DNA of 64,000 bases from Dulcicalothrix desertica PCC 7102 (lineage in GTDB: Bacteria; Cyanobacteriota; Cyanobacteriia; Cyanobacteriales; Nostocaceae): positions 397,934-461,933 of the forward strand of contig NZ_RSCL01000004.1 of the NCBI RefSeq assembly GCF_003991905.1, read 5' to 3'. This document shows, one piece after another, positions 1 to 64,000 of the stretch. Under the pieces are notes generated by a model. It saw only the letters and a program-made list of their open reading frames with translations, had not been told where the DNA came from and searched no databases. The translations under genes were made by a program, and so were the position numbers. The first letter of the stretch is position 1. Every line of letters begins with the position of its first letter.

Positions 1-2
1 CA

Positions 3-872
3 GATGCTGAGACATGGACATTTCTGGAAAGCTTCGCTCTGGGTAATTTACCACTGCGTATCTTAACTGTGAGGGTTACAGGGGTAATAGCAGCTATGAA
101 TTTAGGTCTTGATGCTGCTTTTGGTGACATAATTGCCTTTACCGATGATGATGCAGCACCTCACACTGATTGGCTTGAACGGATTGAAGCAACATTTCTT
201 TCAGATAGCCGTATTGGAGCAGTTGGTGGACGAGATTTTATGTATTATGGTTCAGTTCTGCAAGATTATAACACTCACCCAGGTGCAAGCGATATTGTCG
301 GACGTTTACAGTGGTTCGGACGAGTAATTGGCAATCATCACATCGGTTCGGGAGAAGCACGCGAGGCTGATGTACTTAAGGGAGTCAATGTAAGTTATCG
401 CGCGAATGCAATTAATAAATTACGTTTTGATGAAAGATTGTTAGGTACAGGCGCCCAAGTACATTTTGAGTTAGCATTCTGTTTAACATTAAAACGAGCA
501 GGATGGAAGTTGATATATGACCCATCAATAGCAGTAGACCACTTTCCGGCACAACGTTTTGATGAAGATAAACGCAATACATTCAACAAAATTGCTACTA
601 TTAATTTAGCGCACAACGAAACTCTGATTTTACTTGAACATTTATCACCCATCAGAAAATTGATATATCTTTTGTGGGCGGTGCTGATAGGAACAAGAGA
701 TGCGTATGGAATATTGCAGATTGCGAGATTCTTTAAAAGCGAAAAAAGCATAGCAATAGAAAAATTTATCGCGTCAATGAAAGGACGCTACCAGGGTTGG
801 CAAACGTGGCTTGAAAGCGATTTTAGTAATCAAACTCAGCCCAAAACTTTGAGTGTGGGTGATTTAGAATGA
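3..872 (+). CDS. Glycosyltransferase family 2 (5' partial)
   Basis: The frame is open from the window edge, so the true start lies upstream; the first in-window start codon is a GTG at 69. The protein transfers a sugar from an activated donor and is probably part of extracellular polysaccharide assembly at the inner membrane. The text visible near codon 45 has the GT-A metal-binding acidic triplet (TDDDA), followed by a conserved IGAVGGRD-like strand. A later histidine-containing stretch (DHFPAQRFDEDKR) sits where related GT2 enzymes end their catalytic domain. A hydrophobic segment near the C terminus (LIYLLWAVLIG) suggests membrane association. Its TGA overlaps the ATG of the next gene (ATGA), so the two are probably translationally coupled. 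Acceptor and donor cannot be deduced. Confidence 0.85.
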   Translation, partial: DAETWTFLESFALGNLPLRILTVRVTGVIAAMNLGLDAAFGDIIAFTDDDAAPHTDWLERIEATFLSDSRIGAVGGRDFMYYGSVLQDYNTHPGASDIVGRLQWFGRVIGNHHIGSGEAREADVLKGVNVSYRANAINKLRFDERLLGTGAQVHFELAFCLTLKRAGWKLIYDPSIAVDHFPAQRFDEDKRNTFNKIATINLAHNETLILLEHLSPIRKLIYLLWAVLIGTRDAYGILQIARFFKSEKSIAIEKFIASMKGRYQGWQTWLESDFSNQTQPKTLSVGDLE

Positions 873-2299
873 ACACTAACCAATCATTGTTACCTTATCC
901 TTTAAAGCATAATGCTCCGAAAGAAAATTCACCATTATTTGCATGGCTTGCTATCGGTTCGCTGATAGTATTTAGTGTTGTTTGCTACTTCGGCGCCGCT
1001 AGCTTATTAAGACAAGCTTTTCCTGCGTTATCCTTTTTTGTAGGTCTTTTTCTTTACTTTCGCTACCCAGCACTTTACATTGGTTTCAATTGGTGGCTAT
1101 GGTTTTTAATCGCGATAATTAGGCGCCTGATTGATTATAAAGCTGGTTGGGATACCAACGGCTTTATTTTAATTACACCATATTTAGTTACATTAATTAC
1201 ATTTTGGACATTTGTTAAGGAATTACCTCGGTCACTACGTATAGGCGGGTTTCCCTTTGTTGTAGCAATAATGTCAGTATTTTATGGAATGGCAGTCGGA
1301 TTAGTTAGTTACGACAAAGTAGTAGTATTTCGGACTGCACTCGATTGGTTGGCACCAGTACTTTATGGGTTCCATGTATTTGTAAAATGGCGTGATTATC
1401 CAAACTATCGCCAAAATATTCAAACAGTATTTCTTTGGTGTGTACTATTAACTGGTGCATATGGAATATATCAATATTTAGTGGCGCCTGAATGGGATAA
1501 GTTTTGGTTAATTCAAACCAAACTTGTTTCGATGGGAAGTCCTAGACCATTAGGGCTTCGGGTTTGGGGTACTATGCACTCTCCAGGTCCATTTGCAAAT
1601 ATAATAATGGTAGGTTTATTAATATTACTTAATAACGTTCGTCCTCTTGGTTTTGCCGCATCAATCGTAGGCTACGTATCATTTCTACTAACTGTTGTAC
1701 GTTCATCATGGGGTGGTTGGATAGTTGGGGTAGTTAGTTTAATAACTAATCTTAAACCCAAGTTACAAATGCGACTTGTTGTTACAGCAATTATACTTGT
1801 GCTTTGTGTCGTTCCGCTAGCAACAATCGAGCCATTTGGGAAAGTAATTACCGAACGTCTTGAATCTATAAGTAACCTTGAGAAAGACCAAAGTTTTAAC
1901 GACCGTTCAAACACTTACGACCGCAAATTAGGTATTGCGCTGTCTTCTGTACTTGGTCAAGGAATTGGTGGTACATGGGTAGTAGATAAAGATGGAAAGT
2001 TAGTAAACATAGTTCTCGATAGCGGTATTTTAGATTCTTTTTTTGCACTTGGCTGGTTTGGCGCCATTCCTTACCTTGGCTCCATGATATTGATTATAAT
2101 TCAAAGCTTCCAAGGTTCTGAAACTCGTAACGATGCCTTTGCTTGTACAGCGCGCTCAATTAGTCTGGGAATATTTTTTCAGATGATTTTTAGTAGTTTA
2201 ATGCTTGGACTATCAGGTATAACATTGTGGGGATTTATGGGATTAGCAATGGCAGCTAAGAAATATAACTCCTCACAAATTGTAGGTAGAATGTATTAA
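869..2299 (+). CDS. O-antigen ligase/polymerase-like polytopic membrane protein
   Basis: A 476-residue, very hydrophobic protein with about ten predicted membrane segments. It resembles the Wzy/WaaL-type polymerases of exopolysaccharide clusters. An R-S-S-W motif near residue 275 follows a membrane helix, and the large polar loop after it (about 330-375, ending in DRKLGIALSS) is typical of that fold. It overlaps the upstream glycosyltransferase by four bases, which fits an exopolysaccharide operon. The family is assigned from topology and short motifs only. It could be another multispanning carbohydrate-export protein. Confidence 0.65.
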   Translation: MNTNQSLLPYPLKHNAPKENSPLFAWLAIGSLIVFSVVCYFGAASLLRQAFPALSFFVGLFLYFRYPALYIGFNWWLWFLIAIIRRLIDYKAGWDTNGFILITPYLVTLITFWTFVKELPRSLRIGGFPFVVAIMSVFYGMAVGLVSYDKVVVFRTALDWLAPVLYGFHVFVKWRDYPNYRQNIQTVFLWCVLLTGAYGIYQYLVAPEWDKFWLIQTKLVSMGSPRPLGLRVWGTMHSPGPFANIIMVGLLILLNNVRPLGFAASIVGYVSFLLTVVRSSWGGWIVGVVSLITNLKPKLQMRLVVTAIILVLCVVPLATIEPFGKVITERLESISNLEKDQSFNDRSNTYDRKLGIALSSVLGQGIGGTWVVDKDGKLVNIVLDSGILDSFFALGWFGAIPYLGSMILIIIQSFQGSETRNDAFACTARSISLGIFFQMIFSSLMLGLSGITLWGFMGLAMAAKKYNSSQIVGRMY

Positions 2300-2381
2300 T
2301 TTATGTAATCTTAGTAAGGTGGGCATTGCGTATCTTACTACTCATATAATCAAATAAAAACCGGGCTTCTTCAAAGATAAA

Positions 2382-2409
2382 GTAGAGACGTAAAATTTTA
2401 CGTCTCTAC
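2382..2409. repeat. Palindromic repeat GTAGAGACGT, also a possible bidirectional terminator
   Basis: Inverted repeat with arms GTAGAGACGTA and TACGTCTCTAC around a short AT loop. It sits between two convergent genes. The same arm sequence recurs at 52804-52829 and, diverged, at 61018-61045, so it is a dispersed element rather than a one-off hairpin. Confidence 0.7.
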
Positions 2410-2428
2410 ATCTGTTTGTAAACAAAAA

Positions 2429-4633
2429 TTAATTGGAATCTGCTTTTTGTACCGGAATCTTTTTAGGTAATTGATACACAATCACCTTAGCTTTCCAGTC
2501 TTCTTCCGCAAACACTAGGTAATCACCATTTGTACGTTGAAATGCTCTAATCCCGTAAGGAATGTCAATCCAACCACTTTCATTTGCGACTTCTGGACCG
2601 GGTTTGAATTTTATAACAAAAGCTCCAGTTGCTTTATTGTAAATGTAAACTTCTGCGGCTCTACTTGTAATAATGAATAAGTAATCTCCTGCTACTGTCA
2701 TCGAAGCGGTGACAACTTCGGGATTAGCTTTAGTATCATAAGGAACTGCAACTCGCCACCGCTCTTTGCGGTTGCCTTTACTCCAGTTATCGTAGCGAAA
2801 AACTTCACTTCCAAATGCTTTGCCATCATCAGATCCAGCTGGGTATCTTTCTGTGAAGCCAGATAAATACATTGTATCGGTTTCTGGGAAATACTCGATT
2901 CGACGAATGTCTTTAATTTCTGCTGGGGTGGCAAACTTTTTCATCGAACTATAAGTGTAGATAGGATTTCCTTTACTATCAATACCTTGTAAAGGAAAAT
3001 GGCGAATTCCTTCAGACATCCGTAAAGTTTTCCACACATCACCTTTACTATCTACCCACCATCCACCTTGATAAGGATAATCACGCTTACTAGCATCAAA
3101 CTCACCTTGATCAAAGGCGCCATTACCGTTTTTATCTTGCCATATCCAATCTCCAATTTGTGATTGGTTGGGAGGCCAGCTATCAGATTGTAGTTTTTCT
3201 TCTTTTTCTGGAGTACCCTGAAACAATACTGACGGAATTGCAATTTCGCCATCCGTAGCAGGATTAAAACGATATGCTTGGAGAAACGAACCAAACATAT
3301 TAGTGAAGTACATAAAAGGTTTACCTTGGATACGACGAAAGAATACTGACCCGTGGGCAACACGCAAACGTATATCATCAGGGTATTTGAAGGGGTTAAA
3401 AGTATAACCAAAATAAGTCCATTGTTTTCCTGCAGGCTTACTATAATCCATTACGTAATGGTCGTGCATTGTATATACATGCGTACCATTCATTTTGGGG
3501 TCAGCATCAGCGTTATCTACAAATGGCAACCCAACAACTTGCCATTGTAAGGCGCCATTGGGAGAAAATTTTCTAATGTCAGTACCAGTTTTGATTCCTT
3601 GGGTATCCTTACCTAAATTAAAACCACTGCTGTTAACATATATATTTCCTTTCGCATCAACACCAACTCCAGTAATTCCGTAAAACTTTAAACCTTCAAT
3701 TTTGCCAGGTGTCCCTGCGTACACACCACCTTTTAAACCAAATGTACTAACTTGAACTGGTTTGTTTTTAATATCGTAAATTAAAATCTGTTGGTTTTTA
3801 CCATTATCACCTATCAATAGTCTATTTTGATTGTCAATTGCGATAGCATTGGCGCCAGGTATATTGTTAATAGCTTGCGGTAAACGATTTCCAGATTTTG
3901 AATAGTGTAATATTTGAGCAGAATTAGCGTCTTTCTGGTTTTGAATAATCCATAACGTGTTCTGTTTATCAACCGCAATTTTTGTAGGAGTCGGAACAGA
4001 AAAGCTACGAATTTCTTTTAAGGTTTGGGTATTGTAAACGCGGACTATATTTTCATCGCGTACTGCAACAAATAATTCCGACCCACTAATTGCTAATCCA
4101 GAAACCTCTGCTTTCTTACTAACAATTAACATGCTTTTATCCCAACCATTGCCACCTGTAAACGGTGCAGGTTTTCCAGATAGTGAGAAACGTCGAACAC
4201 AATACCAACTAGTATCTGCAGGAGGATAATCATTACCTTTGCCATCAATATGTCCTTGCAGCATCGACACATACATATACTTTTTATCTGTAGTGACTGC
4301 AATTCCACCAAACCTTCCCCATCCATGTAAATCTTCTGCTCTTGCAATAGCATCACCATTTTTATAGATTCCAGCTTCTCTACCTCCTTCATCCCAAGGA
4401 CTGTTTGTAAAAACCGTACCGTCCGGAGCAACATACATGTCTATAACTTGGTTTTGCACCCATTTTTCGCCACCACCAAAAGTATTACCAATCCAAGAGG
4501 TTCTATAAACTTTAGCTGCTGTATCACCTGCTACCCAATAAAATACTATTATCAAGACAGCTACTAACGCACCAACCAAGCCAAAAGGATATTTTGTGAT
4601 TCTAAGAATCCTATATTTGTTATTTATTATCAT
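2429..4633 (-). CDS. Membrane-anchored beta-propeller (NHL/YVTN-like repeat) protein
   Basis: A 734-residue protein with an N-terminal membrane anchor at about residues 17-35 (FGLVGALVAVLIIVFYWVAG) and a large exported part. Blades carry repeated patterns such as I-A-V-D-K-Q-N-T-L-W-I and IAIDNQNRLLIGD, typical of NHL/SMP-30-like propellers. The C-terminal half holds an acidic loop (DKNGNGAFDQGE) that resembles a calcium-binding EF-hand or dockerin loop. No catalytic residues are recognisable. It converges on the polymerase gene and is followed, after 719 bases, by another glycosyltransferase, so a surface-polysaccharide role is plausible but inferred. No clear ribosome binding site precedes the ATG. 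Confidence 0.6.
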   Translation of the reverse strand: MIINNKYRILRITKYPFGLVGALVAVLIIVFYWVAGDTAAKVYRTSWIGNTFGGGEKWVQNQVIDMYVAPDGTVFTNSPWDEGGREAGIYKNGDAIARAEDLHGWGRFGGIAVTTDKKYMYVSMLQGHIDGKGNDYPPADTSWYCVRRFSLSGKPAPFTGGNGWDKSMLIVSKKAEVSGLAISGSELFVAVRDENIVRVYNTQTLKEIRSFSVPTPTKIAVDKQNTLWIIQNQKDANSAQILHYSKSGNRLPQAINNIPGANAIAIDNQNRLLIGDNGKNQQILIYDIKNKPVQVSTFGLKGGVYAGTPGKIEGLKFYGITGVGVDAKGNIYVNSSGFNLGKDTQGIKTGTDIRKFSPNGALQWQVVGLPFVDNADADPKMNGTHVYTMHDHYVMDYSKPAGKQWTYFGYTFNPFKYPDDIRLRVAHGSVFFRRIQGKPFMYFTNMFGSFLQAYRFNPATDGEIAIPSVLFQGTPEKEEKLQSDSWPPNQSQIGDWIWQDKNGNGAFDQGEFDASKRDYPYQGGWWVDSKGDVWKTLRMSEGIRHFPLQGIDSKGNPIYTYSSMKKFATPAEIKDIRRIEYFPETDTMYLSGFTERYPAGSDDGKAFGSEVFRYDNWSKGNRKERWRVAVPYDTKANPEVVTASMTVAGDYLFIITSRAAEVYIYNKATGAFVIKFKPGPEVANESGWIDIPYGIRAFQRTNGDYLVFAEEDWKAKVIVYQLPKKIPVQKADSN

Positions 4634-5352
4634 TGTTGATATTTACTATTGGATTTACTCAACTCCTTAGACATATCCCATGATTATCAATAAACATAAT
4701 CTTGTTTTATTGTCAGAAGCTTAACATTAATTAACTCTTAATAATTAAGTTTAGGACTTACGCAAAGAAACCGGGTTTCTCAGATTTTTTCATAATCCTT
4801 TAATTTATGTATAAAAATACTCACAGTACGATAAATCAATTTTTGAAAAGAGATATTTGTATGTAAATTAGCAAATAGGTTAGGTTACTATACAAACTTT
4901 ATCAAAACTTTATATATTTCATACCAAAGCTTGAACTTTGATAAATTAAAATTACATTGGGTAGAAAAAATTTTATACGAAGTGGCTTCTGCTTTAAACT
5001 TGCGTTCAAAATTCTAGACGCTATACTTTTATTAATAATACTTATCTAGGCACCTATCGCGTTGAATGTTGCTGAATAAGCGAATTGTAAAATTGCAGGT
5101 TGAGTAAAGCGATTATGTACTTTTCGTAAGTGCCATTTGCCTGTAGCATTAGATATCTTAATACAAGTGTCCGTTTATTTTACTTCAACGCTAAAAATTT
5201 AACTATCAATAAGCAAACTTATTATCGTTTTTCGACATTAAAACGATAAAAGGCGCCTGATTAAGTTAAAAGCAATATGTAGTGGTTATAAAAGTAATCA
5301 TTGTTAATTCAATGTAAACAGTTAATCTTTAATTTCACCATTTGGGTCAATT
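4634..5352. other. 719-base intergenic region
   Basis: Lies between a divergent pair, so it should hold both promoters. I see no gene. It contains one copy of a small palindrome, AGAAACCGGGTTTCT (about 4769-4783), seen elsewhere in the window, and a GGCGCC site at about 5252. The rest is AT-rich sequence that I cannot assign. Confidence 0.5.
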
Positions 5353-6543
5353 ATGAACTTTTGTATAGTAACTCCATACGTTATTAAAGGTGATGGTCAA
5401 GGTCGGGTCAACTATGAAATCGTCTGGGAAGCTATTCGTCGTGGTCACGAAGTAACTTTAGTAGCAAGAAAAGTAGCTCCAGAGCTTCAGGAACAAGGCT
5501 TAGTCAAATTTATAAATTTTGACGTAGAGAAATTTCCCACTGCATTAATAAAAGAAATGATGTTTTCAAGTCAAAGCGCTGCATGGTTATATAAGCATCG
5601 CCAAGAGTTTGACCTAGTACAAATTTGCGGTGCAGTAACTTCATTCCCTGCCGACGTAAACACTTCGCACTTCGTCCATACATCATGGCGCCGTTCTCAC
5701 GTACATACTGCCCGTATGAATAAAAATTTCTATGGGCTTTATCATTGGCTTTATAGTACACTCAATGCTTACTGGGAAAAGCAAGCATATCAAAAAGCCA
5801 AGATATCAGTTGCTGTATCAAACAAAGTTAAACAAGAGTTAATCAATGACGTTAATATAAAACCCGAAAAGATTCACGTTATTCACAATGGCGTTGATGT
5901 GAATGAATTTTTTCCTGGAGTTAGCGACCGTCAGCAACTAGGATTACCAGTCGAGAAAAATTTAGCACTATTTGCAGGTGACATTCGCACAAATCGTAAA
6001 AACTTAGACACAGTACTCAAAGCTATTGTAAAAGTACCATCGTTGCATCTTGTTGTATTAGGAGATACATCCGATAGCCCGTACCCAAAAATGGCAGAAA
6101 ATTTGGGGTTGAGTGACCGCGTATATTTTGCTGGTTTCCGTCGTGATGTCGCCGAAATAATGAGAGCCGTCGATTTTTTTGTATTACCATCGCGCTACGA
6201 AGCATGTACTTTAGTATTACTTGAAGCAATGGCATCGGGTCTTCCCGTCATTACAGCAGAAAGTGCTGGAGGAGCAGAGCTAGTTACACCCGAATCTGGT
6301 TTTGTATTGGCATCAGATAATGTAAACGCATTAGCTACCGCGCTTAATACTTTAACTCTAGATAGCGAACTTAGAACTAAAATGGGTGAAACTGCTCGTA
6401 TAGTAGCCGAACAAAATACATGGGTCAGTAAGGCAGAACATTACATCAACTTATTTGAGAAATTTGTCAATGACGAACATTATCGTAATTGTCGCAATAT
6501 CTCATCACCCGTTGAACAGCGCGCCATACTTAAAGGCGCCTAA
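5353..6543 (+). CDS. Glycosyltransferase family 4 (GT-B fold)
   Basis: A 396-residue retaining glycosyltransferase. The N-terminal half has the glycine-containing acceptor-side loop (VIKGDGQGRVNYEI). Mid-protein there is the IHNGVDVNEFFPG motif common to GT4 enzymes. The nucleotide-sugar-binding signature lies near residue 280 (PSRYEACTLVLLEAMASG), with both glutamates of the E-x7-E motif, followed by GLPVI. No signal peptide is seen, so it acts on the cytoplasmic side of the membrane. It lies next to the polysaccharide genes at 3-2299, which suggests surface glycan synthesis, though it is not in the same operon. Donor and acceptor are unknown. Confidence 0.88.
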   Translation: MNFCIVTPYVIKGDGQGRVNYEIVWEAIRRGHEVTLVARKVAPELQEQGLVKFINFDVEKFPTALIKEMMFSSQSAAWLYKHRQEFDLVQICGAVTSFPADVNTSHFVHTSWRRSHVHTARMNKNFYGLYHWLYSTLNAYWEKQAYQKAKISVAVSNKVKQELINDVNIKPEKIHVIHNGVDVNEFFPGVSDRQQLGLPVEKNLALFAGDIRTNRKNLDTVLKAIVKVPSLHLVVLGDTSDSPYPKMAENLGLSDRVYFAGFRRDVAEIMRAVDFFVLPSRYEACTLVLLEAMASGLPVITAESAGGAELVTPESGFVLASDNVNALATALNTLTLDSELRTKMGETARIVAEQNTWVSKAEHYINLFEKFVNDEHYRNCRNISSPVEQRAILKGA

Positions 6544-6810
6544 TAGTAGTAGCGTGGTATCAGCATATTATCAGTAGCGAAGTAAAGGTAAGGTGGCTGA
6601 AGCCACCATACGATTTCCTAATAGTTAGTAGCTAACAGTTAACAAAGCCATTTTGAGATTAGCTTATAGTTTATTTCGCCTAGTTTGTTTCGCTTATAAG
6701 GGTGCATCATTATAAACCAGCAAGTAGATTGACTTCAAATGTCGCTACACCATGAAGTTAATTTCCATCAATTCTCCGCATATTGCTGATACACCCAACA
6801 CGCACCGTCT

Positions 6811-8370
6811 ATGAATCTATATCGATTTTTGCTGCATTCTTCTTGGGTTGCGATTGCTTTAGCTTTTTTGTTTCCCACTTCAATTAAAAATGCTGAAGCT
6901 AAAACTTTGACAGCAGAGCAAAAAAGTAAAGTTAGGGAAACGGATAGAGATAACATCAAGCTCAAAAAAGAAGTAGCTATTATTCCACAAGAAGCAGCAA
7001 AGCTAGGAGGAATCGTTTCTTTGTCTCCTGCTCCCTCCTCTCCTGATAACCTCCCTGTTCCCTCTACCCCTCCTCTCCCTGCTTCACCTCCAGAACTACT
7101 GTTTCCGACCAAAGCAGAAGAAGTTCAAATTCGACAAAACCAAGCAATAACGCTTCAACAAGCACTAGAAATTGCGCGTCGAAACAATCCCCAACTGCAA
7201 ACCTCGCTACTTGAACTTGAGCGCAGTCAAGCATTACTACGAGAGTCGCAAGCTGCACTGTATCCAACCATTGGTATAAACGGCAGCATTACAAACAGTA
7301 AATCTGCTAGTGACCAACTTTCTGTAGACTCAGGTGTGGCGCCTCCTCTTAGCGATAAAGCGAGAACTGCTTTTAACGGCAGAGCCGAAGTTAATTACAA
7401 CATTTATACTTCAGGCCGTAGAGCAGCGAGCATTCGTCAAGCAGAAGAACAGCTAAGAATTGACGAGTTGAGTGTAGAAACGCGGTATCAAGAAATTAAG
7501 CTGCAAGTAACTAGTCGTTACTATGATTTACAAGCTGCTGACGAACAAGTTCGTATTAGTAGTGCAGCAACAGAAAACGCTAGTGCGAGTTTACGTGATG
7601 CTCAAGCACTTGAACGTGCGGGTGTTGGTACAAGGTTTGACGTACTGCGTTCGCAGGTAAACTTTGCCAATGCTCAACAAGATTTAGCAAACGCACGTGC
7701 TAGACAGCAAATATCACAACGACAATTAGTTGCACTACTAAACATACCGCAAACGCTCAATATAACCACTGCTGACCGAGTAGAAATAGCGGGGTTATGG
7801 AACCAAAAACTAGAACAAACAATAATCCAAGCGTTTCAAAACAGACCTGAGTTACAGCAGCGTTTAGCAGAACGTAATATAGGTGAACAACGACGTAAAT
7901 TTGCTTTAGGACAACTTGGCCCACAAGTTGCCTTAGTTGCCAGTTACGACGTATTAGACCAGTACAACGACAATGTTGGCGCCACAGATGGATACTCAGT
8001 AGGAGTACGTGCAAATTGGAACTTATTCGATGGAGGAGCAGCAAGAGCGCAAGCAGCACAAGCAAAAGCAAATATTGCTATAGCAGAAAGCAACTTTGCA
8101 AACCAACGTAACCAAATACGCTTTGAAGTCGAACAATACTATGCCCAATTACAATCAAATTTAGACAACGTGCAAACCGCAACAGGAGCAGTAGACCAAG
8201 CTGTTGAAGCACTACGACTCGCACGTTTACGCTTTCAAGCTGGTGTTGGTACCCAAACCGACGTTATTGCAGCAGAAAACGACCTCACACGCGCACAAGG
8301 TAATCGCATCACTGCTATCTTAGATTACCAACCGCGCGTTCGCAAACCTACAACGTTCTGTCTCTGCTAA
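6811..8370 (+). CDS. TolC-family outer membrane efflux protein, C-terminal frameshift
   Basis: A 519-residue protein with an N-terminal signal peptide (cleavage near NAEA, about residue 30), a Pro/Ser-rich linker around residues 65-95, then two TolC-type repeats (ITLQQALEIARRNNPQL; NLFDGGAARAQAAQAKANI). It should form the outer membrane channel of a type I or RND export system. The last residues (QPRVRKPTTFCLC) are not TolC-like. After codon LDY near 8328 the +1 frame reads NRAFANLQRSVSAKT and stops at 8377, which is the usual family ending. One extra base at about 8329-8331 therefore explains the odd tail. No pump partner is adjacent. Confidence 0.85.
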   Translation: MNLYRFLLHSSWVAIALAFLFPTSIKNAEAKTLTAEQKSKVRETDRDNIKLKKEVAIIPQEAAKLGGIVSLSPAPSSPDNLPVPSTPPLPASPPELLFPTKAEEVQIRQNQAITLQQALEIARRNNPQLQTSLLELERSQALLRESQAALYPTIGINGSITNSKSASDQLSVDSGVAPPLSDKARTAFNGRAEVNYNIYTSGRRAASIRQAEEQLRIDELSVETRYQEIKLQVTSRYYDLQAADEQVRISSAATENASASLRDAQALERAGVGTRFDVLRSQVNFANAQQDLANARARQQISQRQLVALLNIPQTLNITTADRVEIAGLWNQKLEQTIIQAFQNRPELQQRLAERNIGEQRRKFALGQLGPQVALVASYDVLDQYNDNVGATDGYSVGVRANWNLFDGGAARAQAAQAKANIAIAESNFANQRNQIRFEVEQYYAQLQSNLDNVQTATGAVDQAVEALRLARLRFQAGVGTQTDVIAAENDLTRAQGNRITAILDYQPRVRKPTTFCLC

Positions 8371-8406
8371 AACCTAATAAATTAATATTGATAGCGAAGA
8401 AAGCGT

Positions 8407-14348: not shown

Positions 14349-14361
14349 ATCCTAAATTTAT

Positions 14362-56872: not shown

Positions 56873-57084
56873 TAAAGATTTATGTAGAGGAGCGTAGTAA
56901 TACTCTCCTCATTGTTTATATTGCGTTATAAAATGTGGAAGGCATGGTGATTTGCCTCGAAAGCATGTAAATTAAAATTTTAGAGAAACTTAAGTAAATT
57001 TTAATTATTACTAGTCTTTATTTGCATTGCTTTTGAACAAAACAACCGAAAACTTATAGTAATTTAAAACTACTGCAACAATTA

Positions 57085-57423
57085 ATGCTTGACTTAAACA
57101 CGTTATCTGAATTTTCTCGCGCGAATTGTATAAGTATTTGCGCGTTTCTAGTGCCAGCAAATCTCATTGCAACATCGCTGACAATGATTCTTGTTTTCAT
57201 ACATCGTCAACGTTTATCACAGCAAGTAGGACAAGCATGTGGAATTGCTAGCTTTTTTGCTGTAACCATGATACTACATGTATATACCTGGTTTGAAGTA
57301 GGTATAGTCAGACCGCAAACTTTTATACTGCTATTACTAGCTATTAGTTGTTTACTAACAAACATCGTCGCAGTTTGGTTACATCATCGCTTGGTGAAAG
57401 TAGTGCTGAGTGCTGAGTGCTGA
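57085..57423 (+). CDS. Small three-helix membrane protein with repeat-encoded tail
   Basis: A 112-residue protein with three hydrophobic helices (about 18-40, 52-70, 75-97). The last residues (VVLSAEC) and the stop are read from a TGCTGAG heptamer array, so the natural C terminus may have been longer or different. Unknown function. Confidence 0.55.
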   Translation: MLDLNTLSEFSRANCISICAFLVPANLIATSLTMILVFIHRQRLSQQVGQACGIASFFAVTMILHVYTWFEVGIVRPQTFILLLLAISCLLTNIVAVWLHHRLVKVVLSAEC

Positions 57424-57431
57424 GTAGTGAG
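57403..57431. repeat. STRR heptamer units (GTGCTGA) at the 3' end of the membrane-protein gene
   Basis: Three units of GTGCTGA, then GTAGTGA. They provide the stop codon of the 57085 gene. Confidence 0.7.
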
Positions 57432-57434
57432 TTT

Positions 57435-57781
57435 TTAGTGTTGGGAACATTGATAATGTTGTAATGCAGGTTGTGGAGTGGATACAGTATTAAAGGCAAT
57501 TAATTCGATTCCACCGTCTGCATCTACACCAAATCCTTGAGCTTCGATAAGTTGATGGGAATTTTGATAACAATTTCGATAATTCTGAGTGTAACTTCGA
57601 TTTTGGTTATTTTGACCTCGGCGCCTTGAGATATCACGCATATCATTCCAAGTGGTTTCGCTTCGGAGAGAGTTGCTAGGGTTTGCAGGTATTTCACCAC
57701 GTCCACTAACTATAAAGCGATTTTTTAATCATGATGCTGTACAAGCAGAAGCTATTGGTTGAAATTTAAAAACATATTCTG
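57435..57781 (-). pseudogene. Remnant of a filamentous-haemagglutinin-type exoprotein (3' end)
   Basis: The minus-strand frame ending at 57435 reads FIVSGRGEIPANPSN ... LIEAQGFGVDADGGIEL, the characteristic C-terminal end of cyanobacterial two-partner-secretion proteins. A TGA lies just upstream (57729-57731); before it the family text continues (QPIASACTAS). The rest of the large gene is gone. Its end lies next to a STRR array. Confidence 0.6.
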
Positions 57782-58064
57782 TATAGCAATGATGTATATG
57801 AATTAATTAGTTTTTATAAAATACTGATGATTTATTCTTGAGTAATAATAAATTATTGATTGAGTATTTTACTTTATATTAGCCTATAAGTTGAAGGAAG
57901 TTTTATCATACCTAGAGAAATTACTGAAAAACGTTTTTATCTCTTGTAGAACAGCCCTTCTTTGCCTGTGTTATCAGGCACTTGATACAACATTTGTCAG
58001 GCGGGACGCCTGACCCACAAGAATGGTGTCAGCATAATACAAAAATAATACTAAAAAATACAAA

Positions 58065-58082
58065 TGTGAACCACGGTTCACA
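58065..58082. repeat. Palindrome TGTGAACC-AC-GGTTCACA, copy 2
   Basis: Identical core to 16704-16721; here the arms extend to AAATGTGAACC / GGTTCACATTT. Confidence 0.6.
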
Positions 58083-58265
58083 TTTAGCAAAATAGTTTAA
58101 GTGTACTTTTCAGCCTAAAGGAATATTTTTATACCAAAATTATGTATATCGGGGTAACATTTCATAACTAGTTAAGTTTGCTGCTTTTCGGGCTAAACCT
58201 TAGTAAAAGGAAAGCGAGTGAGACTTACTCTGGTAAACATTAGGTGAAATGGTATTACTACTTAT

Positions 58266-58293
58266 ACCCCTGGTTAAAATACCAGGGGTTTTC
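58266..58293 (+). terminator. Intrinsic terminator without an upstream gene
   Basis: Stem ACCCCTGGT / ACCAGGGGT with a six-base loop and TTTTC on the plus strand. No plus-strand gene ends nearby, so it could close a small RNA. Confidence 0.65.
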
Positions 58294-58311
58294 ATATTGA
58301 CCGAAATTACC

Positions 58312-58992
58312 TTATTCTCTTTGTGGAACCGGAGCAGGTTGAATAGGAGTAGTCTCGAAAGTACGATTGAACTGATTTGGTTGATTAGGTGGCAGTACTG
58401 GCGTATTTACAGGAGTAGGATTCCCTGGTCCGAATGAAGGTAAAAGCCCACCGAGTCTATCGCTAGCATCGATACAGGTGTCCATTGCTTGAAGTGCTGA
58501 GTAATCAATTTCACGACGTATCCCAACTACGCAAGATGCAAACCTAACTGGTAGTAAGCTACGACTACAATAGTTGAAAACTGATGGGTCGAAAGAATCT
58601 CTTTTGCTCGTACTAATGTTAACAACGCAAGTTGCTAAATCTTCAGGACGACGTGCAGAGCGACAAGAAGGAAGAATATCAGTAGCAGCAACCTGAGTTT
58701 GTCGTTGAATTCGAGTCACACAATTAGAAAAGTCTCTTGGACGGAGTACCGCAGCGCAATTTTGTGAAGCAGCTTCGGGGGTAATACCCAGTCTCAGCAG
58801 TCTTCCTGCACAAGCACGGTAATCACTACCAAAAGTACTTGATTGTATTTGACCCATAGCTGGCAAAGTAAAAACAGAAGAAAACCAGCCAGTGATAGCT
58901 AGTACGCTTGCAAGACTGGTAGTATATTTACCTTTCTTCAATAATTTAAACATTTTAATAAATCCCCAAACACCCAACTTATGGTATCGCAT
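58312..58992 (-). CDS. Exported cysteine-repeat protein
   Basis: A protein of about 226 residues, probably starting at the second methionine (MFKLLKK, 58953), with a signal peptide (SVLAITGWFSSVFTLPAMGQ). The mature domain has eight evenly spaced cysteines in four pairs (CAGRLLRLGITPEAASQNC; CVTRIQR; CVVNIST; YCSRSL), each unit about 35-40 residues, suggesting a disulfide-rich repeat fold. A Pro-rich tail (PVNTPVLPPNQPNQF) ends it. The family is cyanobacterial and of unknown function. Confidence 0.7.
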   Translation of the reverse strand: MRYHKLGVWGFIKMFKLLKKGKYTTSLASVLAITGWFSSVFTLPAMGQIQSSTFGSDYRACAGRLLRLGITPEAASQNCAAVLRPRDFSNCVTRIQRQTQVAATDILPSCRSARRPEDLATCVVNISTSKRDSFDPSVFNYCSRSLLPVRFASCVVGIRREIDYSALQAMDTCIDASDRLGGLLPSFGPGNPTPVNTPVLPPNQPNQFNRTFETTPIQPAPVPQRE

Positions 58993-59108
58993 TTAGAGGA
59001 AGGGGGAGGGGTTTAAGGGCTAATTCATAATTCCCTATTCCCTATTTCCAATTTCCATTTATAATTAAATGTCTGAGTAAAATTTAAACAGGATTACAGT
59101 ACTGAACC

Positions 59109-59717
59109 ATGTCCCGATATAGAGGACCTCGTTTAAGAGTCACCCGCCGCTTAGGCGAATTGCCAGGATTAAGTCGTAAAAGTGCCCGTCGTGCTTATCC
59201 ACCTGGTCAGCACGGTCAGAACCGCAAGAAGCGTTCTGAATATGCTGTGCGTTTGGAAGAAAAGCAGAAGCTTCGTTTTAATTACGGTGTTACCGAAAAA
59301 CAGTTGTTGCGTTACGTGCGTAAAGCAAGACGTGTAACCGGTTCAACCGGACAAGTGCTACTGCAATTACTAGAAATGCGCTTGGATAATACAATATTCC
59401 GTTTAGGTATGGCGCCTACCATTCCTGCTGCTCGACAATTAGTTAATCACGGTCATGTATTAATCAATGGACGTGAAGTTAACATTGCCAGTTACCAGTG
59501 CCGTCCCGGTGAGGTTATTAGTGTCCGTAATAACGACCGCTCAAAGAAACTTGTGGAAGCTAATTTGCAATACCCAGGTTTGGCAAACCTCCCTAGCCAT
59601 TTGGAGTTTGACAAAAACAAACTTGAAGGCAAGGTCAATGCTGTTGTTGAGCGCGAATGGGTGGCGCTACAAATTAATGAACTACTGGTCGTTGAGTACT
59701 ACTCACGTCAAGCATAA
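59109..59717 (+). CDS. rpsD: 30S ribosomal protein S4
   Basis: A 202-residue protein with the typical start ([19 protein letters not shown]), the S4 RNA-binding fold ([29 protein letters not shown]) and VEYYSR at the end. Primary 16S rRNA binding protein. The gene stands alone here, not in the alpha operon. Confidence 0.98.
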
Positions 59718-59726
59718 AACAGTTAC

Positions 59727-59801
59727 GAGTGCTGAGTTCTGAGTGCTGAGTAGTAATATTGTATTTTACTCAGCACTCAGCACTTTCCACTCAGCACTGT
59801 T
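59727..59801. repeat. Inverted STRR heptamers between convergent rpsD and moaA
   Basis: GAGTGCTGAGTTCTGAGTG runs into CTCAGCACTCAGCACTTTCC on the other side of a short AT spacer. The opposing arrays can form a long hairpin and probably separate the two transcripts. Confidence 0.65.
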
Positions 59802-60824
59802 TTACCCTCCTATTTGCGACATGGTGCGGCTGTAATTGCCTGTCGCAGTTCCGGAATAACGTTGTTTAAAGTTTATTTCAGATTTTACCGTCAATAATTC
59901 TTGTAGCTGCTCTCGCAATTTGGTAATGCTGATACCGCTGCGGAGAGCAGTTTTTAAATCGATTTGACCCGTTTCGTTTAGTAAACAAGGACGTAACCAA
60001 CCGTCAGCAGAAAGTCTAACTCGGTTACATTTATCGCAAAAGCATTCTGACATTTGGCTAATAAATCCTAATGTACCTTTGGCGCCAGGTATTTGAAAGA
60101 CATCCGCAGGGCCATTACCACGAACTTGACTTTCGGTCAGTCCCCAACGTGCGCGAATTTGCTGACGTAATTCTTCAGAAGCTACCCAACCTTTATTTCC
60201 AAATAAATCACCATTCCCAACTGGCATAAATTCAATAAATCTGACATGCCATTGTTTGTCAAGAGTTAAGGCTGCTAAATCTAATACTTCGTGGTCATTA
60301 ACACCAGGTATTACCACTACATTTAACTTCAACGGGTCAAAGCCTACATTATACGCAGCTTGAATACCATCCCAAACTTGGCGCCACTTCGAGCGTCCAC
60401 GATTACCGATAATTTGGTTAAATGTATCTTCTTCTAAAGAATCTAAGCTAATATTAATCCTTCTTAAACCAGCATTATACAGGTCTTGAGCTATTGGTGC
60501 CAGTAAAAAACCATTAGTTGTCATCGATAAATCTTGCGTTTCTGGCAAAGAGGCAATTCTTTTTACAAGCTCAACAACGTGCGGACGCAATAAAGGTTCA
60601 CCACCAGTTAAACGAAAGCGGGTAAACCCAACTGGAATAAAAACTTCTTTAATCAGAATTAGTAACTCTTCATTCGTTAATAAATTTTGTTTAAGTATAT
60701 AATCTAACTCCGCTCCCTCCGGCATACAGTAATGACACCGGAAATTACAACGGTCAACCAAACTAATTCGCAAATAATCTACTTGATTCATCTTTAACAT
60801 TTTGCTTATACTGTCTATAGACAC
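59802..60824 (-). CDS. moaA: GTP 3',8-cyclase MoaA
   Basis: A 340-residue radical SAM enzyme of molybdenum cofactor biosynthesis. The N-terminal cluster C-x3-C-x2-C ([12 protein letters not shown]) and the C-terminal cluster ([10 protein letters not shown] ... RPCL) are complete, as is the GG C terminus (SQIGG). It converts GTP to 3',8-cH2GTP. Terminal motif intact; no neighbouring moa gene. Confidence 0.97.
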
Positions 60825-61017
60825 TTTGTACTTATTTTGTCAAGATATTAAACACTTATTTTTGGAGTCTCTATACTAATACTCTTTTAAGTTAGCGTGG
60901 AATTATCTAAAATCTCTCTTCAAAAAAGCATACATAGTGCAAATCAACTTCTGGGCAAGCAAAAATATTATGAATCAAAGTTAACTCATTTTTGAGTATT
61001 ATTTTTCACAAAGGCAA

Positions 61018-61045
61018 GTAGAGACCGAATTAATTCTGTCTCTAC
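61018..61045. repeat. GTAGAGAC-type palindrome
   Basis: GTAGAGACCGAAT / ATTCTGTCTCTAC type arms, just after the 3' end of the protease gene (minus strand). Probably its transcription stop. Confidence 0.55.
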
Positions 61046-61062
61046 GCGCAGAGAATTTGCTA

Positions 61063-61989
61063 TTATTTATTACTTAAAGACTCTTGAATGGTAGAAATCT
61101 TCACAGCAAAGTTGGTAATGTCTTGTCCTGTGCGAAGATTTTTAGCTTCAGCATTATTTAAAGCTACAATATAAGGGTCGCCGTTTATTACACCAATAAT
61201 GGCGCCACCACTGGAACCACCGGCTGTAGAACAATCGTGTAGTAAAAAGCCAGAATCTTCTTTAAGAATACTGCACCCTGCTTCATAAGAAGCTGTCCAA
61301 CCTTTACCAGCACTAAAATAATTTTTATATTTCTCAGTTGGGAAGTCACCTGAATAACCAACAAAAAAGAAAGCTTTCGGATTTTGAGTGAGTGTATTAG
61401 TAGGTATAGATTTTAATCCTAAATAACCATATTTACGACCTAAAGGCTGATTGATTTTCATTATCGCCCAGTCGTTAGAACTTATACCACTACCATCCTT
61501 AAAATTTGTACCGTAAATAACCTGCTCAACTTCTGCCACATCTTGAAATCTTTTATCAATCACATTGGGCATAAATAAAATTTGCTTACTTAATTCACCC
61601 GTTTCTGGATCAATTACACAGTGAGCGTTAGTTAAAACCAAATTCTCAGCAATTAAACTACCCGTACAATGATAGCTTTTAGCATCCGCAGTAGTTCCTT
61701 GAATTCGACCTATTGCCGACCAAGGGTATTTTCTACTTAACATTGGAATACGGTTATCAATACCTGTAGGAATTCCTCTAGAACCACCTTCATTCGGCTT
61801 TGTCGAACGTCCTAAATTTTGAGGTACAAAAGGTTTACTAGCTGCTTCTAAGGTAATATTACCTGCTTGTTTTGAACTAATAAACTGTGGTGTAATGCTT
61901 TGCTTAGTTTGTGCTTGTACTGATATTGCTGTCATCGCACTTATAATTCCAGTTAAAAACAGCGCAGTATATTTCTTGCTAATTATCAT
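61063..61989 (-). CDS. Trypsin-like serine protease, exported
   Basis: A 308-residue protein with a signal peptide (LFLTGIISAMTAISVQAQ) and an S1 domain: His in LTNAHC, Asp in SSNDWAIMK, Ser in GGSSGGA. Two disulfide-type Cys pairs (HCTG/HC; GC/DC) are visible. It resembles V8/glutamyl-endopeptidase-like S1B proteins. Its target is unknown. Confidence 0.85.
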   Translation of the reverse strand: MIISKKYTALFLTGIISAMTAISVQAQTKQSITPQFISSKQAGNITLEAASKPFVPQNLGRSTKPNEGGSRGIPTGIDNRIPMLSRKYPWSAIGRIQGTTADAKSYHCTGSLIAENLVLTNAHCVIDPETGELSKQILFMPNVIDKRFQDVAEVEQVIYGTNFKDGSGISSNDWAIMKINQPLGRKYGYLGLKSIPTNTLTQNPKAFFFVGYSGDFPTEKYKNYFSAGKGWTASYEAGCSILKEDSGFLLHDCSTAGGSSGGAIIGVINGDPYIVALNNAEAKNLRTGQDITNFAVKISTIQESLSNK

Positions 61990-62293
61990 CGTCCGCTCCG
62001 AAATTACACTAAGATTACAACAAAGCTAAAATAATCATAAACCAGGTTATTTATCACTAATACAGGCAATAATTAACACAAAATGTCTGTAATTTGATTT
62101 ATTAAAAACGTGATAAACATAACACTTTGGTCACGTATAGATTATTGCATCATTATCAGTACGATTATAAAAAATTTGTGATTATTTTATTTTTCACCCA
62201 TTAAGTCATTGAAACTCAACACTAAACTATATTTCAGGCGCCGGATTACTTATGCATATTAATACGACGCTCTGGCTCGCTTGAGCAATAACT
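61990..62293. other. 304-base region upstream of the protease gene
   Basis: AT-rich; one GGCGCCGG site near 62238. No gene recognised. Confidence 0.4.
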
Positions 62294-64000
62294 TTATTGC
62301 CATTCGCCTTGCACAGTAAAACCAGCCCAGTAATAAGGACTTCGCCATTCAGGGTTCTCCCATAATTTCTTCTGAGCCGCGCGCAGAGCATTTGCAGGCG
62401 TTTTATTTTGCTGTAGCATTTCCTTATAGAATTCCTGCATTAATACTGATGTGCCTTGATCATTAACATTCCATAGCGATACTACAAGACGCTTGCCACC
62501 AGCATACATTAACCCGCGCGTCAATCCTACCAAGCCTTCACCGCTAACATCTTTACCAAGTCCCGTTTCACAGGCACTTAAAACTATTAACTCTGCTGGA
62601 TAGTCAAGATTGAATAAATAACCTAAGCGCAAGTAACCAGGTATTGATTCACCTTTTTTATCAACTAAGGAAAGTACAATTCCTGATAACTCTGGATTTT
62701 CATAATTTACAAAGCCGTGGGTTGCGAAATGTATAATGCGAAATTGATTTACCTCACTGCTGGTTGCCCAAGTATAGTTAGCATCAAAGCCCATTGCCTG
62801 CATACGAGAAGATGCTGGTATCAGGTTTAATATTCCTTGTGCTTCTGTAAATGTACCTTGAAGTCTATCGAAACCGGAACGCTTTAGACTTTTGGTAGAT
62901 TTTTCAAGGTCTGAATTCTGTAGTACTAATTCTGGACCTAATTGATTATTATCAGGTTTTCCTGTAACTCGTTCGTCAGTGGGACTATATACAGGGTCGG
63001 CAAAAATAGCTAACGCTTTTGGTGCCAATGGACGTGTTGCGAGTTTTTGACGTTGGATAGCAAGCGTTGATGCTGAGGGCAAGTTGATGATTTCATGGTT
63101 AAGCATTAATGGTTGATAATTACGAATTTGGTTAGGGTCAGGTAATGCAGCAAACGGAACATCTTGTAATGCACCATCTCCTACAATTACTAATCGCTTT
63201 CCAGGCAATTTATCAGCAACAGGCGCCAGTATAATCTTGCTAAATTCGTTTGATGCTTGAATAACTTCTGGTGGTATGCTATCGGGTATTAGTACGCCAC
63301 TTCTGAATTTACTCGCTGCTGTTTCGATTTGTTGGCGCCCAGGTAATACATAACTAGAAAGTGAATTTTGAGTTACTGCCCACAAATAACTACGTTCTTC
63401 ACCCAAAGAATATTCGAGTAGAACAGTATCTTTATCAAGCAATTTTTGGATTTGCGGAAGTTGCAGAATGTCTCTTCCTAACTTTGGCTTAAGAACTTTT
63501 TCACGGTCTGGGTTTTGCGCGCGGATTTTGGCGTTAACTTCTTCTTGTTCTTTAATAATATTAGTAATTTCTTTTTGAGTTGCTGCAATAAGTTCTAGTG
63601 GTTGTTGCGGCTGGTTTAAATATTGTGATAATAGTGTTTCGGCATCATCGCGTTTGGAAACTAAACGCTCTTCAGCTTCTATAAGGGATGGGTCAATACC
63701 TTTACAAATATCTGCCTTAGCTTGCTTTAAAAGTTCAACTAAACCCCGCGCTTGAGAACGTTCGGAGGTGTAAAGTGCTAATGCATCATAACCTCTCGTA
63801 GGGTTCTTCTTATGCAGCTCCATTAATAAATCTATGTTAAATTTGTAATAATTTTGTACAGAAGCAAAATAAGCACTTTGGTCATCAGTATTAGTATAAG
63901 TTCTGCGTAAATCCTCAATTAACTTAATTGCGTACTGAATACTTTTATATGATTTGTCTAAATTGCCCTGACTGCGTTCTAACAAAGCAATATGACCAAG
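62294..64000 (-). CDS. CHAT-domain protein (5' partial)
   Basis: Open to the window end, so the start lies outside; the first codons seen are LGHIALLERSQGN, part of a TPR array. Residues to about 80 (in-window) are TPR, then a long coiled-coil linker and the CHAT caspase-like protease with catalytic His in IIHFATHGF and Cys in VLSACETGLG. The last block GLMYAGGKRLVVSLWNV completes the fold. Such TPR-CHAT proteins act in conflict and signalling, often activated by a neighbour; none is visible in the window. Confidence 0.9.
   Translation of the reverse strand, partial: LGHIALLERSQGNLDKSYKSIQYAIKLIEDLRRTYTNTDDQSAYFASVQNYYKFNIDLLMELHKKNPTRGYDALALYTSERSQARGLVELLKQAKADICKGIDPSLIEAEERLVSKRDDAETLLSQYLNQPQQPLELIAATQKEITNIIKEQEEVNAKIRAQNPDREKVLKPKLGRDILQLPQIQKLLDKDTVLLEYSLGEERSYLWAVTQNSLSSYVLPGRQQIETAASKFRSGVLIPDSIPPEVIQASNEFSKIILAPVADKLPGKRLVIVGDGALQDVPFAALPDPNQIRNYQPLMLNHEIINLPSASTLAIQRQKLATRPLAPKALAIFADPVYSPTDERVTGKPDNNQLGPELVLQNSDLEKSTKSLKRSGFDRLQGTFTEAQGILNLIPASSRMQAMGFDANYTWATSSEVNQFRIIHFATHGFVNYENPELSGIVLSLVDKKGESIPGYLRLGYLFNLDYPAELIVLSACETGLGKDVSGEGLVGLTRGLMYAGGKRLVVSLWNVNDQGTSVLMQEFYKEMLQQNKTPANALRAAQKKLWENPEWRSPYYWAGFTVQGEWQ

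What the first reader, a model, noticed from the sequence alone, without database searches (positions are those of the whole stretch)
1..64000. GGCGCC is massively over-represented while HIP1 (GCGATCGC) is absent
By hand I count about 110 GGCGCC in 64 kb. At roughly 39% GC, random expectation is about four. Copies occur in all three codon frames (encoding GA, AP or RR-type pairs) and in intergenic DNA, so the selection is on the DNA, not the protein. I saw no GCGATCGC. A different short palindrome seems to occupy the HIP1 niche in this genome. Whether this is already catalogued I cannot check.
Basis: partly seen in the sequence, partly recalled or inferred. Interest (0 to 1): 0.85.

Follow-up and report, generated by a model that had tools for sequence, protein, structure and literature searches.

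The report
Genus-wide GGCGCC replacement of HIP1
In one group of Calothrix cyanobacteria the genome-wide short palindrome that most relatives carry (HIP1) has been replaced by another one, GGCGCC, roughly every 600 bases, together with a lone DNA-methylating enzyme expected to mark it; the swap was published for one strain in 2015, and here it appears in all seven genomes examined of that genus, with signs that the sites are actively kept.

Summary
GGCGCC occurs 113 times in the window (3-6 expected) and 19,393 times in the 11.42-Mb genome; HIP1 is absent from the window and at background in the genome. It is already catalogued: Elhai 2015 (PMC4390886) described GGCGCC as an alternate HIP in Calothrix PCC 7103, a relative 6.75% diverged. 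New here: (1) all 7 held genomes of the genus are GGCGCC-rich and HIP1-poor; none of 185 other family genomes is GGCGCC-rich. This contradicts Elhai's view that alternate HIPs do not persist in clades. (2) The window holds the likely writer, an m5C methyltransferase (43797-44738, -) whose relatives often sit beside a HindVP-type (GRCGYC) endonuclease; the genus keeps the methylase (7/7) without the endonuclease (0/7), and lacks a methylase found in 178/185 relatives. (3) Sites are conserved above flanks in 4 of 5 relatives. At codon-matched positions outer transitions are 4-7-fold suppressed, but C3>T and G4>A run at the control rate, as expected of m5C at the central C. Products of that change lose the constraint. 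(4) Vsr repair and a looser GGYRCC motif are not supported. Selection and Elhai's repair ratchet are not separated.

The parts
450..63339 (.). 113 dispersed GGCGCC palindromes (first at 450, last at 63334), mean spacing 561 bp, in all three codon frames and non-coding DNA
43797..44738 (-). 313-aa m5C DNA methyltransferase, HindV/BsaHI-type (GRCGYC) as judged from the gene neighbours of its relatives and from site depletion there; no endonuclease beside it here; the likely writer of the GGCGCC mark
   Evidence: PF00145 E 7.9e-66; uninterrupted syntenic orthologs in 6 genus genomes, in the 7th (G076) the 94-95% identical copy is split over two contig ends and a second, 83% identical copy is whole; pairwise dN/dS 0.05-0.14 in the 15 pairs of the six; RE_HindVP-family neighbour in 17 of 23 non-genus loci examined, out of 54 non-genus genomes with a match
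44834..46027 (-). RuBisCO-like protein (PF00016), neighbour of the methyltransferase in 6 of the 7 genus loci examined, marking a fixed chromosomal address
41689..43737 (+). SLH + GHL10 glycosyl-hydrolase-like protein, neighbour on the other side; the same ORF family lies there in 4 of the 7 genus loci examined

Best explanation
GGCGCC is an alternate highly iterated palindrome (HIP) of this Calothrix genus. Shown: it is dense in all seven held genomes, HIP1 is at or near background, an m5C methyltransferase whose relatives are partnered with GRCGYC-type endonucleases is kept without such an endonuclease, and the sites are conserved above their flanks in four of five comparisons. Inferred: this solitary enzyme methylates the central cytosine, giving GG(m5C)GCC, so the genome carries a G-m5C-G mark about every 600 bp, as HIP1 genomes carry G-m5C-GATCGC about every 1000 bp. 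Inferred: an ancestor lost the HIP1 methyltransferase and HIP1 sites, lost the endonuclease that had kept GRCGYC sites rare, and the freed methyltransferase's site took over the HIP role. Sites are now held by a pressure on the intact methylated palindrome (purifying selection or site-directed conversion) and lost mainly by deamination of the methylated C to T, after which the remnant is unconstrained.
For: Distribution: GGCGCC 1150-1711 per Mb in 7 of 7 genus genomes; at most 111 per Mb, median 2.6, in 185 others of 55 genera. HIP1 31-163 copies in the 7, at least 535 in 184 of 185 others. Methyltransferase 7 of 7; RE_HindVP 0 of 7 against 42 of 185, several of these broken. A near-universal m5C methyltransferase: 178 of 185 elsewhere, 0 of 7 here at E <= 1e-80. 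Where the window's enzyme type occurs outside the genus GGCGCC is rarer (median 0.94 vs 4.55 per Mb, n = 54 and 131, p = 0.001); in named loci around such relatives GGCGCC is 0 in 16 of 19. Conservation against flanking hexamers: 315/349 vs 0.724 (G138), 282/347 vs 0.689 (G127), 172/231 vs 0.425 (G115), 23/37 vs 0.236 (G101). Codon-matched: position 6 C>T 9/483 vs 87/1224; position 5 C>T 2/198 vs 105/1539; position 4 transversions 0/237 vs 57/1467; but position 3 C>T 36/483 vs 80/1014 and position 4 G>A 17/237 vs 113/1467. GGTGCC/GGCACC show no excess conservation of the outer four bases. Apparent gains from one-off sequences 16 vs 2.7 expected in one trio of genomes and 9 vs 3.5 in another. 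Published: M.BsaHI methylates the central C of GRCGYC (PMC2413257, passages); in Synechocystis the first C of CGATCG in HIP1 is m5C (PMC6604393, passages).
Against: No methylation data for any genus member, and GRCGYC specificity is by association, not assay. One close relative (G030, a MAG) shows no significant excess conservation: 66/82 vs 0.742, p = 0.34. In non-coding DNA the excess is small or rests on few sites: 28/36 vs 0.729, 27/33 vs 0.694, 10/16 vs 0.333. In the wider trio (G000, G138, G115) C3>T and G4>A are also below the general background (0.0285 vs 0.0401; 0.0142 vs 0.0362), though far above most other changes. Position 6 transversions are only about 1.8-fold suppressed (10/483 vs 46/1224). 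On the three short branches losses exceed gains, 107 to 20 (60 to 5 in PCC 7103), so the set is eroding there. An orphan methyltransferase is not sufficient: of 14 non-genus genomes with a match and no RE_HindVP hit (10 look whole) none is GGCGCC-rich (0.3-42.6 per Mb). Loss of the near-universal methylase is not sufficient for HIP1 loss: the 7 non-genus genomes without it have 2878-6883 HIP1 copies. HIP1 is above its reversed control in G101 (147 vs 37), G127 (163 vs 58) and G115 (125 vs 75).
Confidence: 0.63

Rival explanations
1. Elhai's ratchet: a G-m5C-directed mismatch repair system preserves mutations that create G-m5C and so fills the genome with GGCGCC as a by-product, with no selection on the site itself.
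For: Gain excess from one-off precursors, 16 vs 2.7 and 9 vs 3.5 expected; all one-off hexamers are below expectation except GGTGCC and GTCGCC (and their complements); the internal C is the base the model needs (footprint; M.BsaHI); low HIP1 as the model requires.
Against: Gaps between sites are close to exponential, without a clear 1-kb saturation scale (1000-2000 bp: 117 vs 116.8 expected; over 3000 bp 8 vs 4.7), though 2000-3000 bp gaps are short of expectation (11 vs 21.2). The second methyltransferase copy that Elhai thought may have been critical is not needed: the window's genome and G101 each have one match at E <= 1e-30. The model does not predict genus-long persistence, and its author argued that alternate HIPs do not persist. 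The G-m5C nickase is hypothetical in the paper.
Confidence: 0.23
2. Uptake-sequence-like molecular drive: imported or recombined conspecific DNA is favoured when it carries (methylated) GGCGCC, so sites spread by transformation.
For: Density similar to known uptake sequences (recalled); about 50% lower conjugation efficiency in the Synechocystis mutant lacking m5C at CGATCG (PMC6604393 abstract passage); some gain bias.
Against: No uptake or competence data here; a 6-bp palindrome is unlike recalled uptake signals; net loss on current branches.
Confidence: 0.08
3. Very-short-patch (Vsr) T:G repair overcorrects GGTGCC to GGCGCC.
For: GGTGCC and GGCACC are the states most often converted to GGCGCC in the first trio (10 of 16 gains).
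Against: Vsr (PF03852) 0 of 7 in the genus and 1 of 192 in the family sample; GGTGCC is in excess, not depleted (100 vs 75.7); C3>T is the commonest loss on short branches.
Confidence: 0.02
4. Protein-level or codon-usage effect (Gly-Ala rich proteins, GC-rich codons).
For: About half of the sites are GGC|GCC (388 of 787); Gly-Ala dipeptides are 17% above expectation (856 vs 731).
Against: Independent codon choice gives 21.7, not 388; sites occur in all frames and in non-coding DNA; nearly all other codon pairs for Gly-Ala are below expectation.
Confidence: 0.01
5. The conserved unit is GGYRCC (a looser recognition sequence), so C3>T and G4>A are simply tolerated.
For: Position 3/4 transitions occur at the codon-matched control rate.
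Against: The outer four bases of GGTGCC/GGCACC are not conserved above flanks: 27/37 vs 0.730, 29/39 vs 0.803, 13/25 vs 0.625; GGTACC is not enriched (5 vs 7.0).
Confidence: 0.01

Closest known systems
GGCGCC alternate HIP of Calothrix PCC 7103 (Elhai 2015, PMC4390886)
   Different: Elhai treated it as a sporadic exception with two methyltransferase copies; here it is the state of a whole genus, with one copy in the window's genome, no HindVP-family endonuclease, and a site-level substitution footprint
HIP1 (GCGATCGC) with GATC and CGATCG methyltransferases
   Same: GC-rich palindrome at a density of the same order; conserved above flanks (HIP1 in genus g4: 47/50, 51/53, 38/41 and 25/28 kept, flanking 8-mers 0.64-0.68); G-m5C-G core if the methylation here is as inferred
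   Different: Different sequence and methyltransferase; GGCGCC is eroded by C3>T, and no such dominant class was seen among the few HIP1 losses
HindV / BsaHI / HgiDI restriction-modification systems (GRCGYC)
   Same: Relatives of the window's methyltransferase sit beside a HindVP-family endonuclease in 17 of 23 loci examined
   Different: In this genus the endonuclease is missing (0 of 7) and one of the four GRCGYC sequences is hugely over-represented instead of avoided
Alternate HIPs RCCGGY (Oscillatoria PCC 10802) and GCSGC (Cyanothece PCC 7822), from the same paper
   Same: Low HIP1, over-represented methylation site, matching methyltransferase (as reported there)
   Different: Different motifs and lineages; not examined here

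Membership tests
Alternate HIP (class proposed in PMC4390886) | GC-rich palindrome over-represented far beyond any other | tested here: met
   113 vs 5.5 in the window, next CGCGCG 22 vs 5.3; 787 vs 18 over 462 kb
Alternate HIP (class proposed in PMC4390886) | Seen only where HIP1 is low or absent | tested here: met
   7 of 7 genus genomes with 31-163 HIP1 copies, 0.6 to 4 times the reversed control
Alternate HIP (class proposed in PMC4390886) | A methyltransferase able to methylate the sequence is present | tested here: inconclusive
   Orphan GRCGYC-type methyltransferase in 7 of 7; specificity by neighbourhood of relatives and site depletion, not by assay
Alternate HIP (class proposed in PMC4390886) | Sporadic, not in clades (Elhai's statement) | tested here: not met
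   All 7 held genomes of the genus; this speaks against the statement rather than against membership
HIP1 itself | GCGATCGC at high frequency | tested here: not met
   0 in the window, 58 in the genome
HindV/BsaHI-type GRCGYC m5C methyltransferase | m5C methyltransferase family | tested here: met
   PF00145, profile positions 1-321 of 324
HindV/BsaHI-type GRCGYC m5C methyltransferase | Partnered with a HindVP-family endonuclease | tested here: not met
   Not in this genus, 0 of 7; met by relatives outside it in 17 of 23 loci examined, so it is at most an orphan of the family
HindV/BsaHI-type GRCGYC m5C methyltransferase | Methylates the central C of GRCGYC | not testable with these tools
   Only the C3>T/G4>A substitution footprint and the published M.BsaHI result
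DNA uptake sequence | Biased uptake of DNA bearing the motif | not testable with these tools
   none

The most novel reading that the evidence does not exclude
The HIP role lies in a dense G-m5C-G methyl mark, not in a particular sequence. This genus stably replaced the HIP1 mark with GG(m5C)GCC written by a methyltransferase captured from a decayed GRCGYC restriction system, and then built up and guarded about 7,500-20,400 sites per genome. It is a natural swap experiment that separates the mark from HIP1's GATC and CGATCG enzymes.
Probability: 0.4. Interest if true: 0.75.

Novelty: new member of a known kind. Interest (0 to 1): 0.52.

Why it matters
The function of HIP1 is still open. An alternate HIP fixed across a genus removes an argument that only HIP1 itself is selected, and ties HIP status to a specific orphan methyltransferase. 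It allows a test that HIP1 alone cannot give: what do GG(m5C)GCC and G(m5C)GATCGC share? The substitution footprint also gives a sequence-only way to infer which base a solitary m5C methyltransferase marks.

Tried and rejected
Chance or GC-rich composition: rejected. Codon or protein effect: rejected. Vsr very-short-patch repair: no PF03852 match in 7 of 7. GGYRCC as the real motif: not supported. Elhai's second methyltransferase copy as a requirement: not needed. A 1-kb spacing rule: not seen; the clearest departure from random spacing is few gaps under 30 bp (9 vs 39.2, of which about 8 of the shortfall is the hexamer's own length). Other lineages: among 386 genomes sampled from the phylum (143 genera; G000 the only genus member among them) no other exceeded 1000 GGCGCC per Mb with a reversed-pattern control below 200 per Mb. 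G259 (9,489 in 3.8 Mb, control 2,450) carries a 54% identical methyltransferase, but its 8-kb sample is 52% G+C with several GC palindromes elevated: left as a lead. G395 (2,493 vs control 38) has no match nearer than 37% identity. I chose nine outlier genomes; five had any match.

Literature: searches for highly iterated palindrome with methyltransferase, GGCGCC with cyanobacteria and overrepresented, HIP1 with palindrome and selection, GRCGYC, Calothrix with HIP1, methylome with CGATCG and HindV listed no later report of the genus-wide pattern in this library, which lacks most subscription papers; I judged from listings and read passages of four papers only.

Limits: the identity of the near-universal methyltransferase as the CGATCG enzyme is inferred from its ubiquity, not tested. 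Genus and family are the tool's labels. Counts were typed; genome sizes other than G000's are rounded in those calls. Only part of the 461,933 bases aligned: 190,007 columns for G127, 197,619 for G138, 130,604 for G115, so 347, 349 and 231 of 787 sites were compared; G030 and G101 were compared over the window only (82 and 37 of 113 sites). The last 25 kb of the contig were not used. Dropped: alignment pieces under 400 bp (under 300 bp) or overlapping better ones; columns where the three taxa all differ; losses with more than one change are counted apart from single losses.
Full report
What is there. The window is G000:C4:397934-461933 of an 11.42-Mb genome in 109 contigs. It holds 113 GGCGCC where 3.3 to 5.5 are expected, and no GCGATCGC or CGATCG. 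The motif is the hexamer itself: the flanking bases show only mild preferences. Genome-wide there are 19,393 copies, one per 589 bp, against 1 for the letters read backwards. HIP1 occurs 58 times, against 62 for its own reversed control.

Already in print. Elhai 2015 (PMC4390886; outline with abstract, passages, sections 12, 13 and 19, and part 1 of section 18 seen) reports GGCGCC as an alternate HIP of Calothrix PCC 7103 and of 19 kb of Calothrix D253, with HIP1 low and two GRCGYC methyltransferases, and proposes a G-m5C-directed mismatch-repair ratchet. The window's genome is a relative at 6.75% divergence over 190,007 aligned bases.

Genus-wide state. Of 192 family genomes searched, the 7 of the window's genus carry 7,475-20,380 GGCGCC (1150-1711 per Mb) and the other 185, from 55 genera, at most 1,053 (at most 111, median 2.6 per Mb). 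HIP1 is the mirror image: 31-163 in the 7, at least 535 in 184 of the 185; the exception, G082 with 30, is 88% complete. In the 7, HIP1 equals its reversed control within a factor of two except in G127 (163 vs 58) and G101 (147 vs 37). Elhai argued that exceptional HIPs occur sporadically, not in clades, and do not persist (section 18). Seven genomes, with synonymous divergence up to 0.88 between methyltransferase orthologs, contradict that.

The likely writer lies in the window. ORF 43797-44738 (-) is a 313-aa m5C methyltransferase. Uninterrupted orthologs lie beside a RuBisCO-like gene in G000, G127, G030, G138, G101 and G115; in G076 the 94-95% identical copy is split over two contig ends, and a second whole copy is 83% identical. 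Pairwise dN/dS among the six is 0.05-0.14, so it is under constraint. Outside the genus 54 of 185 genomes have a match at E <= 1e-30, some of them broken. In 17 of the 23 such loci that I had DNA for, a neighbour belongs to one ORF family; two members tested match PF09519 RE_HindVP at E 1e-156 and 2e-154. BsaHI, HgiDI and HgiGI recognise GRCGYC, and HindVP is among their putative homologues (PMC2413257 passages). The same paper reports that HindVP and a Crocosphaera homologue had no activity and lack the ExK motif; the five cyanobacterial proteins that I printed carry an E-I-K and the SPERRFD motif (my reading, not aligned). RE_HindVP is found in 42 of 185 non-genus genomes (41 over the family's cut-off) and 0 of 7 here. 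In 19 named non-genus loci around relatives of the methyltransferase (one of them a weak partial match), GGCGCC is 0 in 16 and the other GRCGYC sequences are 0 in 14; the clear exceptions are the Clostridia (2 and 11) and Olsenella (10 and 31) loci, and many loci are short enough that one or two sites would be expected anyway. So the genus seems to hold an orphan of a restriction system whose other carriers mostly avoid the site.

The HIP1 side is gone too. A 425-aa m5C methyltransferase found in 178 of 185 non-genus genomes is in 0 of 7 here (E <= 1e-80). Its ubiquity fits the CGATCG (HIP1) enzyme described by Elhai, but I did not test its specificity. Neither condition is sufficient: the 7 non-genus genomes without it keep 2878-6883 HIP1 copies, and the 14 non-genus genomes with a GRCGYC-type methylase match but no RE_HindVP hit, 10 of them apparently whole, have only 0.3-42.6 GGCGCC per Mb.

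Conservation. I aligned 461,933 bases of the window's contig with stretches of relatives. GGCGCC is kept more often than the hexamers beside it in G138 (315/349 vs 0.724), G127 (282/347 vs 0.689), G115 (172/231 vs 0.425) and G101 (23/37 vs 0.236), p from 1e-4 to 2e-15; in G030 it is not significantly better (66/82 vs 0.742, p = 0.34). In coding DNA the excess is clear; in non-coding DNA it is 27/33 vs 0.694 (G127), 28/36 vs 0.729 (G138) and 10/16 vs 0.333 (G115). In a HIP1 genus (g4), HIP1 is kept in 47/50, 51/53, 38/41 and 25/28 cases against flanking 8-mers at 0.64-0.68.

Footprint. With G000, G127 and G138 as a three-branch star, 335 node sites give 1,005 branch-sites: changes at positions 1, 2, 5 and 6 are far below background (for example G2>A 2 vs about 24 expected, C5>T 2 vs about 25) while C3>T (39, 0.0388 vs 0.0245) is above it and G4>A (18, 0.0179 vs 0.0240) a little below. 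In the wider trio G000, G138 and G115, C3>T (20 of 702) and G4>A (10) are below the general background (0.0285 vs 0.0401 and 0.0142 vs 0.0362), but G2>A and C5>T are 0. The codon-matched test on the first trio removes the protein effect. As Gly-Ala codons, position 6 C>T is 9/483 against 87/1224 for other GCC codons (p = 6e-6; transversions there 10/483 vs 46/1224), but position 3 C>T is 36/483 against 80/1014 for other GGC codons (p = 0.84). As CGC codons, position 5 C>T is 2/198 vs 105/1539 (p = 4e-4). As GCG codons, position 4 G>A is 17/237 vs 113/1467 (p = 0.90), while transversions there are 0/237 vs 57/1467 (p = 3e-4). GGTGCC and GGCACC are themselves not conserved at the outer four bases, so they look like dead sites, not tolerated variants. 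The simple reading is that the central C mutates to T several-fold faster, as m5C does, under a constraint that acts on nearly every change. M.BsaHI methylates exactly that base, which answers one gap that Elhai named (section 18); RIMS-seq lists GRCGYC as a methylated motif in Haemophilus influenzae Rd (PMC8565308, one passage). In Synechocystis the first C of CGATCG inside HIP1 is m5C (PMC6604393 passages), so both HIPs would carry G-m5C-G.

Gains, losses and spacing. In the first trio gains from one-off sequences are 16 against 2.7 expected, 10 of them from GGTGCC or GGCACC; parallel C>T losses could mimic about two (my estimate from the rates). In the second trio they are 9 against 3.5, 3 of them from those two. 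Losses outnumber gains 107 to 20 in the first trio, most in PCC 7103 (60 to 5). The set is therefore guarded but slowly shrinking on these branches. On the longer G115 branch single C3>T/G4>A losses are 10 of 57, partly because lost sites go on changing. Gaps between sites are close to exponential except for few below 30 bp (9 vs 39.2) and a shortfall at 2000-3000 bp (11 vs 21.2), which gives little support to a repair-reach scale of about 1 kb.

Verdict. A real, strong and already described kind of feature, here shown to be the state of a whole genus, with a likely writer and a substitution footprint. Whether the guard is selection for a function or a site-directed repair bias is open; the repair ratchet remains the main rival.

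Noticed in passing
window 46641-49523 (-): A 270-aa ORF with no Pfam match and a 658-aa m5C methyltransferase with a C-terminal extension lie in an alignment break in G030 and G115 and, but for its first 270 bases, in G138, while the stretch aligns in G127; G101 is not informative. It carries 4 GGCGCC sites, the usual density. Probably a mobile restriction or defence block.
   Followed up: partly
window 15480, 40905-40977, 57402-57425, 58493, 59728-59798: Dispersed short tandem repeat of a 7-bp unit (AGTGCTG and its complement).
   Followed up: no
window, whole: Many other six-base palindromes are absent: TTCGAA 0 vs 19.9, TGCGCA 0 vs 15.6, GCATGC 0 vs 14.3, TGGCCA 0 vs 12.2, AGATCT 0 vs 12.4 (order-1 expectation), as if many type II systems had acted; the genome has 13 PF00145 stretches.
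   Followed up: no
window, 22 sites: CGCGCG is the only other GC-only palindrome with more than a two-fold excess (22 vs 5.3), without the conservation of GGCGCC (0.71 of 73 vs 0.90 of 349 kept in G138).
   Followed up: partly
L298 (G259:C57): Another genome of the same order has 9,489 GGCGCC in 3.8 Mb while three genomes of its genus have about 300, and carries a 54% identical methyltransferase; its reversed control and local G+C are also high. Possible second origin.
   Followed up: partly
G127 (Calothrix PCC 7103): Loses GGCGCC 1.5 to 2.2 times as fast per unit divergence as its two sisters (60 losses at branch 0.036 vs 19 at 0.025 and 28 at 0.026, of 335).
   Followed up: no
window 44834-46027 (-): RuBisCO-like protein (PF00016) in a constant place beside the methyltransferase.
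   Followed up: no
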